Positions 35,777 through 56,865 of a stretch of DNA of 64,000 nt are shown in pieces (the first letter of the stretch is position 1; every line of letters begins with the position of its first letter). The notes beneath the pieces are model-generated. The model searched no databases and was not told the DNA's origin. It worked only from the letters and a program-made list of their open reading frames with translations. Location: positions 1 through 64,000 of IMG/VR virus record IMGVR_UViG_3300020578_000064. One strand, 5' to 3'. Source of the DNA: a virus. The position numbers and the translations under genes were made by a program.

Positions 35777-35876
35777 ATGATGAGACTCCTAGAGTGGCTG
35801 CTCCGCGGCCACGTGCACTCGGTTCTACCTCCGGTGCAAGAAGTGCGGCTGGGTCCGCAAAATTGACTGCAAATGA
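35777..35876 (+). pseudogene. Small zinc-ribbon gene with apparent 1-base frameshift
   Basis: From ATG 35777 the frame reads MMRLLEWLLRGHVHS and then stops at 35866. One base over, the sequence reads RFYLRCKKCGWVRKIDCK and its stop overlaps the halogenase ATG as ATGA, the normal junction in this genome. Joined, the two halves would make a protein of about 30 residues with a C-x-x-C-G knuckle. Either a one-base change broke it or the frame is rescued by recoding. Confidence 0.4.
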
Positions 35877-37426
35877 CGACAGAACTCAAGAGGATAGTCA
35901 TCGTCGGCGGCGGGTCCGCAGGTTGGATGACCGCGGCAACGCTGCTGCGTTCGTGCCCAACGGTAGAGATTACGGTCGTTGAGAGCCCCGACGTGCCTGT
36001 GATCGGCGTCGGCGAGAGCACGCTGGGGCAGTTCAAGCTCTGGGCGCGGTACGTCGGCATCGAAGAGCGCGAATTCGTCCCGGCAACGGACGCGTCGTTC
36101 AAGCTCAGCATCAGGTTCACGGACTTCAACGGGGTCGGGACCGGCTCCTTCCACTACCCGTTCGGGACGCCAGCGATCGAGCGCGGCACCTACGAGCCCA
36201 ACGACTGGTTCGTGGCCGACGCTCTCGGCGCTGGTGGCAACCCGTCCTACGCCAGGGCGATGTTCCCGGCCACGGCCCTCGCCGAGCGCAACCGGATCAG
36301 CGGCGGGAGCGGCGGCGACCTCGCGCCGTACGACTACAATCTGGACGCAGCTTACCACTTCGACGCCGTGCGATTCGGCGCGTGGCTCGGGCAGAAGCAC
36401 TGCGTCCCCGAGGGTGTAAGGCGCATCGAGGGCACTGTAAAAGGTCACAGGCTCGGCGGGAACGGCATCGATGCGCTGATCATGGACGACGGCTCGGAGA
36501 TCGCCGCAGACCTATATGTTGATTGCACCGGCTGGCGCAGCCTTCTGATCGGTGGGGCGATGTCCGAGCCCTTTAAGTCCTACCGGGGCATCCTCCCTAA
36601 CAACAAGGCGTGGGCCGCGAGACTACCGTACACCGACAAGGCCGCGCAATTGGAGCCATTCACGGACTGCACCGCGCTCGGCAACGGCTGGGTGTGGAAC
36701 ACGCCACTGTGGTCCCGGATCGGGTCGGGTTATGTGTACAGCGACGGGTACGTCTCTGATGACCAGGCCCTCACCGAGTTCATAGATCATCTGCGCGCAA
36801 AAGGCATCGAGCGGCCTGAGGACCTCAGCTTCCGCAAGCTCGGCATGAGGATCGGCATCCACGAGCGAACGTGGGTCAAGAATGTGGTCGCCATAGGGCT
36901 ATCGGCTGGGTTCATCGAGCCCCTGGAGAGCAACGGGCTGCTGACGATCCACGAGTTCGCGCTGCTGCTCGGCGAGACGCTCGCGCGCAGATCGTTCAAC
37001 CAGTGGGACCGCGACGCGTACAACCAGAGAGTCTCGCAGCTGTTCGACGAGTTCGCGGCCTTCGTCTCCTTCCACTACGCGCTCAGCTCCAGGGACGACA
37101 CGGAGTACTGGCGCGACGCGACCGAGCGCACGAGGCTCTCGGCCGGGCTCGATCTGGGCCGCGCCTCGTTCTCGAGCTACGCGGACTCGAGGCTGTTCTC
37201 GCGACGCTGGAACGAGTCGGCCGGCGGGATCTGCGTCTTCGCAGGCATGGGGCACAACCACCTACCGCGGCCGTTCCTCGAGCTAGAGGGCACGCGGACC
37301 GGCCTGGACTTCGAGAGCCTGGCCCGCAGGAGCTCGGCCTTCGCGTCCGATCGCTATAATCGCTGGGCGCGGGCCGCCGAGCGGTCGCCGCGCCTGATCG
37401 ACTTCCTGAGAACCTACCACGAGTAA
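35873..37426 (+). CDS. Flavin-dependent tryptophan-halogenase-family protein 1
   Basis: This 517-residue enzyme has the FAD-binding GGGSAGW (12-18), GVGEST, and a Lys77 in SFKLSIRF at the place of the catalytic lysine of PrnA-type halogenases. The W-x-W-x-x-P signature is WVWNTP (273-278), and GFIEPLES (347-353) supplies the conserved glutamates. These enzymes use FADH2, O2 and halide to make hypohalous acid. A cyanophage member (VirX1 of Syn10) is a characterised iodinase, so a cyanophage role is known but the natural substrate is not. Codon use is more mixed than in neighbours, consistent with recent acquisition. Confidence 0.88.
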   Translation: MTTELKRIVIVGGGSAGWMTAATLLRSCPTVEITVVESPDVPVIGVGESTLGQFKLWARYVGIEEREFVPATDASFKLSIRFTDFNGVGTGSFHYPFGTPAIERGTYEPNDWFVADALGAGGNPSYARAMFPATALAERNRISGGSGGDLAPYDYNLDAAYHFDAVRFGAWLGQKHCVPEGVRRIEGTVKGHRLGGNGIDALIMDDGSEIAADLYVDCTGWRSLLIGGAMSEPFKSYRGILPNNKAWAARLPYTDKAAQLEPFTDCTALGNGWVWNTPLWSRIGSGYVYSDGYVSDDQALTEFIDHLRAKGIERPEDLSFRKLGMRIGIHERTWVKNVVAIGLSAGFIEPLESNGLLTIHEFALLLGETLARRSFNQWDRDAYNQRVSQLFDEFAAFVSFHYALSSRDDTEYWRDATERTRLSAGLDLGRASFSSYADSRLFSRRWNESAGGICVFAGMGHNHLPRPFLELEGTRTGLDFESLARRSSAFASDRYNRWARAAERSPRLIDFLRTYHE

Positions 37427-47411: not shown

Positions 47412-48875
47412 ATGCCGCACAGGATAGTCATACTCGGGTCGGGGACAGCCGGCGCCGTAGCGGCCTCGTACATCAAGTCGTACTGGGGTGACGCGGTCGA
47501 GGTCACGCAGATCTACGATCACAACAGGCCGTGCATCGGCGTGGGCGAGAGCACCACGCCCCACATCTTCCATTTCCTCCAGCGCGTCGGGCTGACGTTC
47601 GAGGACCTGGTGAAGGGCACCAGCTCCACGGTGAAGCTCGGGATCAGATTCAAGGACTGGCTCGGGGACGGCGCCTCCTACTATCACAACTTCCTGCAGG
47701 GCGAGGGGCGTTACGACGACATGTCGTCGGAGTTCGCGTCCGAGGTCGCCGCCGGGTCAGACGAGGGCCTGACATTTCAGGACTGGCGGGTGGCCGAGGA
47801 GAACATGGTGCCGCACTCCTGCTACAAGGACGCCAACTTCGCCGCGCACCTTGACTCCCAGGAGTTCAGCCGCTTCGTCGAGCGGTGGATGGGGGACTCG
47901 ATCCGGGTGATCGACGGGGTCGTCGAGCACGTCTCAGTCGAGGGAGGGGAGATCAAGAGCCTGCGCCTGGCGGACGGGTCGATCGTGACCGCCGACTTCT
48001 TCCTGGACGCGTCCGGCCTGGCGAGGACCCTGATCGGCCGGCTGGACGGCGGGTGGGCCGACAGATCGGACTACCTGCCCGTCGACCGGGCGATCCCGAA
48101 CCCGGTGCCGCACTCCAAGAGCACGTACGAGCCGTACACGCTGGCCGAGGCGACCAGGCACGGGTGGATCTGGCAGGTCCCGCTGCAGCACAGGTACGGC
48201 ACGGGTTACGTGTACTCCTCCAAGTTCACGAGCGACGACGAGGCCAGGGCCGACTTCTCCGGCTGGCTAGAGCGCAACCACGGCGTCGGCCTGACCTCGG
48301 ACAGGCTGATCGAGTTCGGCTGCGGATACTACGAGCGCCCATGGTCCGGCAACTGCCTGGCCGTGGGGCTCGCCGCGGGATTCGTCGAGCCGCTGGAGTC
48401 GACGAGCATCCACATCACCACGATGCAGCTCGACCACTTCTGCGCCAGGTACACGCTGCGCAACCTCAAGTACGACCGCGACAACTATAACAGGCACTTC
48501 GCGGCGGTCTGGGCGGACACGTGCGACTTCATCAGGTTCCACTACCACACGCGCCGCCGCGACTCGCCGTTCTGGCGGCACATAGCCGACACGACGCCCG
48601 AGTGGCTGTCCGACATGGCCGAGAAGCTCTCGTCGGACGTCGTCAACAAGTACCACTTCAGGGCCAACCTGATGGTCTTCTCCGAGATCAACTGGTGCCC
48701 GGTGGCGCTTGGGCTCGGCCTATGCGACCGGGGCGCCGCGCGGCGGTACCTGGATCTGCGGGGGATAGCGGCCCACGCCGAGCGCGAGCGCTCGAGAAAG
48801 AGCGTCGTGAGAGAGCTCGACAGGGCCGTAGCGCGCGATCACGGCGAGTTCATCTCGTTCCTCAGGGGGCGCTAG
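47412..48875 (+). CDS. Flavin-dependent tryptophan-halogenase-family protein 2
   Basis: This 487-residue enzyme has GSGTAG (9-14) for FAD, GVGEST, Lys75 in STVKLGIRF at the catalytic-lysine place, WIWQVP (252-257) as the W-x-W-x-x-P motif and GFVEPLES. It is only distantly similar to halogenase 1 (the second ends LRGR and is 30 residues shorter), so they are not recent duplicates. The substrate is not predictable. It follows a strong terminator and precedes a small membrane-like protein by 2 bases. Confidence 0.88.
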   Translation: MPHRIVILGSGTAGAVAASYIKSYWGDAVEVTQIYDHNRPCIGVGESTTPHIFHFLQRVGLTFEDLVKGTSSTVKLGIRFKDWLGDGASYYHNFLQGEGRYDDMSSEFASEVAAGSDEGLTFQDWRVAEENMVPHSCYKDANFAAHLDSQEFSRFVERWMGDSIRVIDGVVEHVSVEGGEIKSLRLADGSIVTADFFLDASGLARTLIGRLDGGWADRSDYLPVDRAIPNPVPHSKSTYEPYTLAEATRHGWIWQVPLQHRYGTGYVYSSKFTSDDEARADFSGWLERNHGVGLTSDRLIEFGCGYYERPWSGNCLAVGLAAGFVEPLESTSIHITTMQLDHFCARYTLRNLKYDRDNYNRHFAAVWADTCDFIRFHYHTRRRDSPFWRHIADTTPEWLSDMAEKLSSDVVNKYHFRANLMVFSEINWCPVALGLGLCDRGAARRYLDLRGIAAHAERERSRKSVVRELDRAVARDHGEFISFLRGR

Positions 48876-55546: not shown

Positions 55547-56401
55547 ATGAAAGCAATCGCAACCGCCGCCCTGGCCGCCGCGACCCTGACCGCGCCCGCG
55601 ATGGCCCAGGTGACCAGCGTCGGCCAGCTGAGCGACGTCCAGCCCACCGAGTGGTCCTACCAGGCCGTGAGCAACCTGGTGAGCCGCTACGGCTGCGTCG
55701 CCGGCTTCCCCAACGGCACCTTCCAACCCGGCCAGCCCGCGACCCGCGCGCAGCTCGCCGCCCTGGTGAACGCCTGCGTCGACCGCATCTCCGAGTTCCA
55801 GGACGCCAAGGACGCCCAGCTCGCCGCGGCCCTGAAGGCACAGGCCGCCAAGTGGGACGGCACCGCGGCTAAGGTGAACGCCATCCAGGCCGGCATCGAC
55901 GCCAAGAACAACGGCGTGGGCAACTACCTCGGCCTCGGCGTCGCCCTGAACAAGCAGGGCGTGGACGGCGGCGGCTACGGCGCCGGCCGCACCATCTCCG
56001 GCGGCACCCTGCAGGCCCGCTACAAGGTGGCCAGCAAGCTCGGCGGCGACGTCTCGATCCGCCCCTACCTGAACGCCGCGGCCGGCCCCAACGGCAACAT
56101 CGGCACCGCCGGCGGCGCGCTCGTCTCCTACGACCGCAGCATCGCCAAGAAGGGCGGCGTGAGCTCCGCCAACATCTACGGCGGCGTCGGCTACCAGGTG
56201 CCCTTCGTGAACGGCTCGCAGGCCAACGAGCAATCGGCCATCGGCGACCGCGGCCAGGCGGTGTTCGTCCTCGGCGCCGAGGGCCGCATCACCAACTCCC
56301 TCGTGGGTTTCGCGGACCTGAAGTTCCCCACCACCAACGCGGGCGTCCAGGGCACCGCCTACAGCCCAGTATTCACCACCGGCCTCGGCTTCAAGTTCTG
56401 A
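55547..56401 (+). CDS. SLH-domain porin-like outer-membrane protein
   Basis: The start is ATG 55547, which gives a signal peptide MKAIATAALAAATLTAPAMA with cleavage after AMA. Residues 24-80 are an S-layer homology domain of the cyanobacterial porin type (LSDVQPTEWSYQAVSNLVSR, YGCVAGFPNGTFQPG, TRAQLAALVNACVDR). A short coiled coil follows and then about 160 residues of alternating beta strands ending in GLGFKF, a terminal Phe as in outer-membrane barrels. It is about half the length of host SomA/OprB porins. It may change permeability or mask receptors in the infected cell. Confidence 0.8.
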   Translation: MKAIATAALAAATLTAPAMAQVTSVGQLSDVQPTEWSYQAVSNLVSRYGCVAGFPNGTFQPGQPATRAQLAALVNACVDRISEFQDAKDAQLAAALKAQAAKWDGTAAKVNAIQAGIDAKNNGVGNYLGLGVALNKQGVDGGGYGAGRTISGGTLQARYKVASKLGGDVSIRPYLNAAAGPNGNIGTAGGALVSYDRSIAKKGGVSSANIYGGVGYQVPFVNGSQANEQSAIGDRGQAVFVLGAEGRITNSLVGFADLKFPTTNAGVQGTAYSPVFTTGLGFKF

Positions 56402-56577
56402 TGACCACCACCGAGCAGATCGTCGAGGCTTTCGAGCAGTGGCGGGCGGAGGACGGGAAGTTCACCGACAAGGGTAACAAGGCGGCCGGCACCAGGGCCC
56501 GCAAGGCTCTCCTGGAGCTCGGCAAGCTGGCCAAGGCCCGCAGGGCCGAGATCAGCGAGTCCAAGGCGGAAGCCTGA
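56401..56577 (+). CDS. Histone-H1-like small basic protein
   Basis: This 58-residue protein (starting MTTTEQIVEAFEQWRAEDGK, then KGNKAAGTRARKALLELGKL and RRAEISESK) matches small proteins annotated as histone H1-like in cyanophages; it is basic and probably binds DNA. The stop-start overlap with the porin links the two. A terminator follows. Confidence 0.65.
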   Translation: MTTTEQIVEAFEQWRAEDGKFTDKGNKAAGTRARKALLELGKLAKARRAEISESKAEA

Positions 56578-56670: not shown

Positions 56671-56865
56671 ATGACAGTAACGACCAACGACCGCGGGCAG
56701 CAGAACATGTGGGCGAAGGAGCCCACGATGTACTACGAGAACTACGGCATGCTGACCCCCAACGAGGTCAAGGAGCGCACCAACGGGCGCTGGGCCATGA
56801 TGGGCATCGTCGCCGGGGCGATCTCCTACGCGATCACCGGCAAACTCTTCTTCGGTATCTACTGA
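56671..56865 (+). CDS. hli: High-light-inducible protein 1
   Basis: This 64-residue protein is a single-helix chlorophyll-binding Hli: TPNEVKERTNGRWAMMGIVA, then GAISYAITGKLFFG. The E-x-x-NGR-x-AM-x-G motif binds chlorophyll and folds as a thylakoid-membrane helix that protects photosystems during infection. The N-terminal 30 residues carry an unusual MWAKEPTMYYENYG. Its own promoter region lies upstream after a terminator. Confidence 0.93.
   Translation: MTVTTNDRGQQNMWAKEPTMYYENYGMLTPNEVKERTNGRWAMMGIVAGAISYAITGKLFFGIY

What the first reader, a model, noticed from the sequence alone, without database searches (positions are those of the whole stretch)
55547..56401. Phage-encoded SLH porin-like outer-membrane protein
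Seen: signal peptide, cyanobacterial-type SLH domain and a short beta barrel ending in Phe. Codon use is strongly biased as in highly expressed host genes. Known: host SomA-type porins are candidate phage receptors and nutrient channels. Inference: it may replace or block host porin to exclude other phages, or raise uptake of nutrients during infection.
Basis: partly seen in the sequence, partly recalled or inferred. Interest (0 to 1): 0.7.

Follow-up and report, generated by a model that had tools for sequence, protein, structure and literature searches.

The report
Phage-made outer-membrane tether, not a porin
Viruses of the cyanobacterium Synechococcus carry a gene that joins the cell-wall-gripping arm of the host's pore proteins to a small, virus-only barrel too narrow to be an ordinary pore, and codon use suggests that it is made in very large amounts to alter the surface of the infected cell.

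Summary
In detail: window 55547-56401 (+) encodes 284 aa with a signal peptide, one SLH domain, a coiled-coil stalk and a C-terminal barrel ending in Phe. Its codon bias is the strongest in the window, and in 30 of 33 relatives' loci it is the most biased gene. The label "SomA-type porin" does not hold. AlphaFold2 gives 8 strands (OmpA/OmpW fold, Z about 15), not the 16 or more of a porin, with invariant charged residues predicted to face the lumen. Only the SLH-stalk (residues 21-115) matches host SomB porins, at about 50-55% identity. The barrel was found in none of about 300 cyanobacterial genomes, but in at least 140 viral loci and in isolates S-PM2 and S-CREM1. The phage stalks form one clade, well separated from the hosts', so this is an old phage family, not a recent capture. 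It usually lies upstream of hli genes, away from structural genes. Best reading: an OmpA-like outer-membrane to cell-wall tether, made abundantly, that remodels the infected cell's envelope. The benefit (excluding rival phages, envelope integrity, other) is open. Clokie et al. (2010) already proposed protection for the S-PM2 homologue. New here: chimeric architecture, phage-only barrel, breadth, conserved context.

The parts
55547..56401 (+). Whole gene: phage SLH-stalk plus 8-stranded barrel protein, 284 aa
55547..55606 (+). Signal peptide, residues 1-20, AMA^Q cleavage site
   Evidence: read from sequence; aligned in 37 homologues
55631..55759 (+). SLH domain, residues 29-71; Cys50 and (just beyond) Cys77 are shared with all 77 host stalks compared
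55805..55912 (+). Helical coiled-coil stalk, residues 87-122 (homologous to host SomB porin stalk up to about residue 115)
55925..56398 (+). 8-stranded OmpA/OmpW-like beta barrel, residues 127-284, phage-specific at sequence level, C-terminal Phe
56401..56577 (+). 58-aa histone H1-like (Hc1) protein; start codon overlaps the SLH gene's stop (TGATG), same arrangement in related phage L017
56595..56616 (+). 8-bp stem, 4-base loop then TTT: weak terminator-like hairpin after the two-gene unit
   Evidence: read from sequence; not called by the scanner, weak
56671..56865 (+). High-light-inducible protein (hli), 64 aa
56864..56977 (+). Second short hli-like ORF, 37 aa (EKLNGRLAMIS motif)
   Evidence: no family match by itself

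Best explanation
The gene encodes a secreted outer-membrane protein built from two modules: an N-terminal arm (SLH domain plus coiled coil) taken long ago from a cyanobacterial SomB-type porin, and a C-terminal 8-stranded OmpA-like barrel found only in phages. Proposed working: Sec export; barrel insertion by the host BAM machinery (C-terminal beta-signal GLGFKF); the stalk, possibly as a trimer, crosses the periplasm and its SLH domain grips the pyruvylated cell-wall polymer that host SLH porins use. It is thus an OmpA-like outer-membrane to cell-wall tether, not a pore, made in large amounts, that remodels the envelope of the infected cell. Shown by computation: domain make-up, predicted barrel size, host origin of the stalk only, phage restriction, extreme codon bias, placement next to hli genes and outside the structural region. 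Inferred: outer-membrane location, SLH binding, abundance and early timing. Least certain is the benefit: I favour surface remodelling that crowds out or displaces host SLH porins and keeps the outer membrane attached through a long infection, over nutrient uptake.
For: SLH plus signal peptide. AlphaFold2: 8 strands, barrel pLDDT mostly 75-94; best solved matches OmpW and OmpA, Z about 15, also NspA, OmpX, Ail. Dyad repeat in all strands, with R158, R172, D196, E245, R247, D257 and K259 invariant and assigned to the lumen. NF033921 SomB profile matches residues 22-92 only; host ORFs are nearly all 500-900 aa and most align only up to about residue 115, best ones at 48-55% identity. Barrel profile: none of about 300 genomes, 8 of 9 phage control records; none of the host porin ORFs. 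Phage stalks one clade, SH-aLRT 100. Codon bias top. Near-consensus sigma70 promoters (10+ of 12) upstream in 25 of 60 relatives vs 4 in shuffles, T4-type late boxes in 20 of 60 vs 1.4. [quoted passage not shown] CsaB, maker of the SLH ligand, in 36 of 61 host-order genomes. Pyruvylation loss detaches the outer membrane in Synechocystis (PMC9163127). Single-SLH stalked proteins tether outer membrane to wall in Veillonella (PMC10628300).
Against: No experiment. The SLH-stalk part of the model is poor (pLDDT about 30-59), so trimerisation is argued only from homology to OmpM. The window gene itself has no sigma70-like promoter, so timing is taken from relatives. The 2006 transcription paper cited by the review could not be read. 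8-stranded barrels such as OmpW can pass small hydrophobic molecules, so a narrow transport role is not excluded. A phage about to lyse its host needs no new envelope tether unless it helps during infection.
Confidence: 0.6

Rival explanations
1. Superinfection exclusion: the protein is made to hide or displace the host porin or other receptor so that other phages cannot adsorb (first reader; close to Clokie et al. 2010).
For: Surface-exposed class of protein, reported early and abundant for S-PM2 (PMC2984593), extreme codon bias; shares its stalk with host SomB porins.
Against: Predicted outer loops are short and not strongly variable (entropy 0.73-1.21 against 0.17-0.75 in strands); no receptor known; no exclusion data found.
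Confidence: 0.3
2. Nutrient or iron channel: it raises uptake through the outer membrane during infection (annotated 'iron uptake porin' in S-CREM1).
For: Stalk homology to NF033921 'iron uptake porin'; some relatives have a Dps-like and a ferredoxin-like gene nearby (14 and 13 of 62; Dps also near the S-SRM01 porin).
Against: The porin barrel is missing: 8 strands, charged lumen; S-SRM01 shows what a phage-borne real SLH-OprB porin looks like, 478 aa and full NF033921/OprB match.
Confidence: 0.1
3. Envelope reinforcement only: it replaces host tethers that are no longer made, so the outer membrane stays attached until programmed lysis.
For: Tether architecture; loss of SLH attachment strips the outer membrane in Synechocystis (PMC9163127); an RlpA-like cell-wall protein is encoded upstream in 12 of 62 relatives.
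Against: No evidence that host tethers run short during infection.
Confidence: 0.3
4. Virion component (fibre or host-recognition protein).
For: Weak PHROG tail-fibre match (E=0.049).
Against: Signal peptide and barrel; located among sigma factor, hli and ribonucleotide reductase genes, not the structural block; S-CREM1 virion proteomics lists 14 proteins (4 structural, 9 of unknown function, 1 without database match), which leaves no evident room for one named porin (PMC9964418; supplementary table not readable here).
Confidence: 0.03

Closest known systems
Synechococcus phage S-PM2 p168 'putative S-layer protein' and S-CREM1 gp199 'iron uptake porin'
   Same: Same family end to end, 59-71% identity, same size and barrel; S-PM2 also has hli genes just downstream
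   Different: Filed under names that describe only the SLH arm; T4-like backbones, whereas the window phage belongs near S-CBWM1
Cyanobacterial SomA/SomB SLH porins (NF033921; SLH plus OprB)
   Same: Signal peptide, SLH, coiled-coil stalk, two conserved Cys; about 50-55% identity over residues 21-115
   Different: Host barrel is porin-size and unrelated in sequence; phage barrel 8-stranded
OmpM of Veillonella (8bym, 8bys, 8bz2)
   Same: Single SLH plus coiled-coil stalk plus outer-membrane barrel, proven tether (PMC10628300)
   Different: OmpM is a porin-size trimer that also takes up nutrients; its SLH ligand is polyaminated peptidoglycan
OmpA / OmpW / OmpX / Ail 8-stranded barrels
   Same: Predicted fold, Z about 11-15; OmpA (general knowledge) also links the outer membrane to the wall
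   Different: OmpA grips the wall with a C-terminal domain, here an N-terminal SLH arm; sequence identity under 20%
S-CBWM1 gp38 (156 aa outer-membrane barrel)
   Same: Similar barrel model (rmsd 2.3 over 162 columns, 23% identity); nearest isolated relative of the window phage
   Different: No SLH stalk; sequence link weak (identity of gp38 with the database entry inferred from length)
Phage S-SRM01 gp283 porin
   Same: Phage-borne SLH outer-membrane protein, stalk 48% identical
   Different: Full host-type SLH-OprB porin, groups with Synechococcus stalks: a separate, more recent acquisition

Membership tests
SomA/SomB SLH porin (NF033921, 'iron uptake porin') | N-terminal SLH and stalk | tested here: met
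   NF033921 positions 1-71 align to residues 22-92, E=5.1e-22
SomA/SomB SLH porin (NF033921, 'iron uptake porin') | Score above the family's curated cut-off over the full length | tested here: not met
   78.2 bits against 100; match stops at profile position 71 of 485
SomA/SomB SLH porin (NF033921, 'iron uptake porin') | Porin-size (16-18 strand, OprB-type) barrel | tested here: not met
   8 predicted strands; no OprB match for the window protein
SomA/SomB SLH porin (NF033921, 'iron uptake porin') | Solute conductance | not testable with these tools
   needs bilayer or liposome assay
SLH domain proteins (PF00395) | SLH match above gathering score | tested here: met
   41.4 bits against 20.8
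SLH domain proteins (PF00395) | Binding to pyruvylated cell-wall polymer | not testable with these tools
   CsaB in 36 of 61 host-order genomes is indirect support
OmpA-like 8-stranded outer-membrane barrels | 8-stranded beta barrel fold | tested here: met
   AlphaFold2 barrel pLDDT mostly 75-94; Z 15 to OmpW and OmpA; predicted, not solved
OmpA-like 8-stranded outer-membrane barrels | Sequence match to an OmpA/OmpW/OMP_b-brl family | tested here: inconclusive
   no such Pfam match in 24 members at E<=10; it looks like one, membership unproven
S-PM2 p168 family (phage SLH-barrel proteins) | End-to-end homology including the barrel | tested here: met
   59-71% identity over 90-93% of the query

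The most novel reading that the evidence does not exclude
The phage protein is a dominant-negative partner of the host's major porins: because its stalk is homologous to theirs, it enters stalk trimers with SomB-type porins or outcompetes them for wall sites, putting closed 8-stranded barrels in place of open pores and so shutting the infected cell's outer membrane to other phages and solutes.
Probability: 0.12. Interest if true: 0.78.

Novelty: new variant of a known kind. Interest (0 to 1): 0.52.

Why it matters
If right, a widespread group of Synechococcus phages carries what may be one of its most strongly translated genes not for replication or photosynthesis but for rebuilding the host's outer membrane, by welding the host's wall-gripping arm to a phage-only closed barrel. 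It corrects the current labels ('S-layer protein', 'iron uptake porin', 'porin'), gives a concrete target for testing whether cyanophages exclude rivals or armour the infected cell, and predicts dependence on host CsaB, which most small (Prochlorococcus-size) genomes sampled lack.

Tried and rejected
Porin or channel reading: rejected on strand count, charged lumen and lack of OprB match. Recent host capture: rejected by the tree and by the barrel's absence from about 300 genomes. First genome-contig scan with the single protein found no relative; the alignment scan found stalk-level relatives only. Two host hits that run on into the barrel region (L106, L157, 32% identity) are 559-588 aa ORFs and the barrel profile does not match them. 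Codon reading of the upstream tRNA-Gly(UCC): the gene uses GGT/GGC, hardly GGA, so the tRNA is not there to translate it. Sigma70 promoter at the window gene: none. Exact 2006 S-PM2 transcription data: paper not held; no p168 data in the text of the 2024 S-PM2 transcriptome paper. No isolate with close DNA similarity to window 40000-64000.

Full report
WHAT IS THERE. Window 55547-56401 (+) is an intact 284-aa gene in a 65.7-kb viral record. The nearest isolate is Synechococcus phage S-CBWM1 (terminase 55%, primase 54% identity). A 150-kb relative, L017, shares the terminase at 92% and the downstream Hc1 gene at 95%, so the record is probably a fragment. The protein has a signal peptide, one SLH domain (Pfam, residues 29-71, E=1.4e-10), a helical stalk (87-122) and a barrel (127-284).

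THE BARREL IS NOT A PORIN. An AlphaFold2 model from 37 aligned viral homologues gives eight strands, with barrel pLDDT mostly 75-94; the SLH and stalk are poorly modelled. The closest solved structures are OmpW and OmpA (Z about 15), then PagL, NspA, OprF, Ail and OmpX. All eight strands show alternation of hydrophobic and polar residues, and every invariant charged residue in them except the C-terminal Lys283 (R158, R172, D196, E245, R247, D257, K259) was tested and is assigned to the lumen side. From general knowledge, this resembles the salt-bridged interior of OmpA rather than the hydrophobic one of OmpW; that comparison was not tested. The lumen assignment comes from strand parity, not from coordinates.

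WHERE THE PARTS COME FROM. The NCBIfam SomB porin model matches only residues 22-92 and stays under its cut-off. An alignment-based scan of about 85,000 bacterial and archaeal genomes, which used one pattern from the SLH region and one from the barrel, returned cyanobacterial SLH porins whose best matches cover the stalk only, at about 50-55% identity. The barrel-only profile finds nothing in about 300 genomes of picocyanobacteria and relatives (5 at E<=1, 299 at E<=0.1, at least one shared), nothing in the host porin ORFs, but 8 of 9 phage control records. The one control missed, S-SRM01, really carries a full SLH-OprB porin. In a stalk tree all 61 short-barrel phage proteins form one side of a branch (SH-aLRT 100) separated from hosts by about 1.5 changes per column, while S-SRM01 groups with Synechococcus. 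The tree rests on 110 columns and the host sample was drawn by a motif search, so the exact donor is not resolved.

DISTRIBUTION. At least 140 IMG/VR loci and isolates S-PM2 (59%) and S-CREM1 (71%) encode it. It occurs on at least two unrelated backbones: T4-like (Kyanoviridae) and the S-CBWM1-like lineage of the window. S-CBWM1 has a stalk-less 156-aa barrel, gp38, two genes from an RlpA-like gene; its identity with the structure-database entry is inferred from length, and its sequence link to this barrel is weak.

EXPRESSION. Effective number of codons is 24.2 against 34 expected from GC3, below every other ORF call of 100 aa or more in the window. Across 33 relatives' loci, with GC3 from 0.23 to 0.94, the gene is the most biased in 30 (about 4 expected). 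Upstream of relatives, sigma70-like promoters scoring 10 or more of 12 occur in 25 of 60 (4 in shuffles), and T4-type late boxes in 20 of 60 (1.4 in shuffles). The window gene lacks a sigma70-like promoter. [quoted passage not shown]

CONTEXT. In the window the order is sigma factor, two small genes, SLH-barrel, Hc1 (start overlapping the stop), hli, short hli-like ORF, three small ORFs, then ribonucleotide reductase genes. Tail, tape-measure and terminase genes lie between 0 and 47 kb. hli genes lie within 4 kb downstream in 37 of 62 distinct relatives and never upstream. With a strict motif, 27 of 54 have one within 1.2 kb downstream, 0 of 55 upstream, and 5 of 258 background blocks. Many of these loci are related phages, so counts overstate independence, but S-PM2 and the window phage, on different backbones, share the order. 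This is a host-takeover neighbourhood, not a virion one. S-CREM1 virion proteomics (PMC9964418) describes 14 detected proteins without mention of the porin; the table itself was not readable.

MECHANISM. Shown: modules, predicted fold, phage restriction, codon bias, context. Inferred from established work: in cyanobacteria SLH domains of outer-membrane proteins hold pyruvylated wall polysaccharide, and loss of pyruvylation detaches the outer membrane (PMC9163127). A single SLH plus coiled coil plus barrel is a proven tether in Veillonella OmpM (PMC10628300). CsaB, the pyruvylating enzyme, is over its cut-off in 36 of 61 genomes of the host order and is missing or sub-threshold in those of 1.9 Mb or less, so the protein should matter in Synechococcus-type hosts; the isolates that carry it infect Synechococcus. 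I therefore read it as an abundant OmpA-like tether that remodels the infected cell's outer membrane. Whether the gain is exclusion of rivals, envelope integrity, or both cannot be decided from sequence.

VERDICT. Observation confirmed; porin interpretation replaced; exclusion idea possible but prior-published and untested. The family is a new variant of a known kind (SLH outer-membrane tethers).

Noticed in passing
upstream of the SLH-barrel gene in L002, L005, L006, L083 (S-PM2) and 27 other loci: A tRNA-Gly(UCC) gene lies 45-86 bp upstream in 31 of 60 distinct loci (31 of the 33 nearest tRNAs), against 12 of 371 tRNAs elsewhere in the same loci; the gene hardly uses GGA codons. Possible mRNA 5'-end processing role or just old synteny.
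   Followed up: partly
window 56401-56577: 58-aa histone H1-like Hc1 protein translationally coupled (TGATG) to the SLH gene; 95% identical copy in the same place in L017, other copies 1-4 kb upstream of the SLH gene in five loci and in S-SRM01.
   Followed up: partly
order of G002, 61 genomes: CsaB (SLH-ligand pyruvylase) is absent or sub-threshold in the genomes of 1.9 Mb or less although these still have SomB-like porins with weaker matches: streamlined Prochlorococcus may have lost this kind of outer-membrane tether.
   Followed up: partly
window 35873-37426 and 47412-48875: Two ORFs that look like flavin-dependent tryptophan halogenases (read by eye, not searched), a gene type known from cyanomyoviruses.
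   Followed up: no
L163 25022-26266 (S-CBWM1 gp36-gp38): RlpA-like cell-wall protein near a stalk-less outer-membrane barrel; RlpA-like genes also lie upstream of the SLH-barrel gene in 12 of 62 loci.
   Followed up: partly
L007, L049 downstream flanks: Ferredoxin-like (13 of 62) and Dps-like (14 of 62) genes cluster downstream of the SLH-barrel gene (assigned by eye).
   Followed up: partly
L104: A contig labelled Bifidobacterium breve MAG carries a Synechococcus SLH porin whose stalk is identical to that of L109: probably a mislabelled or contaminated record.
   Followed up: no
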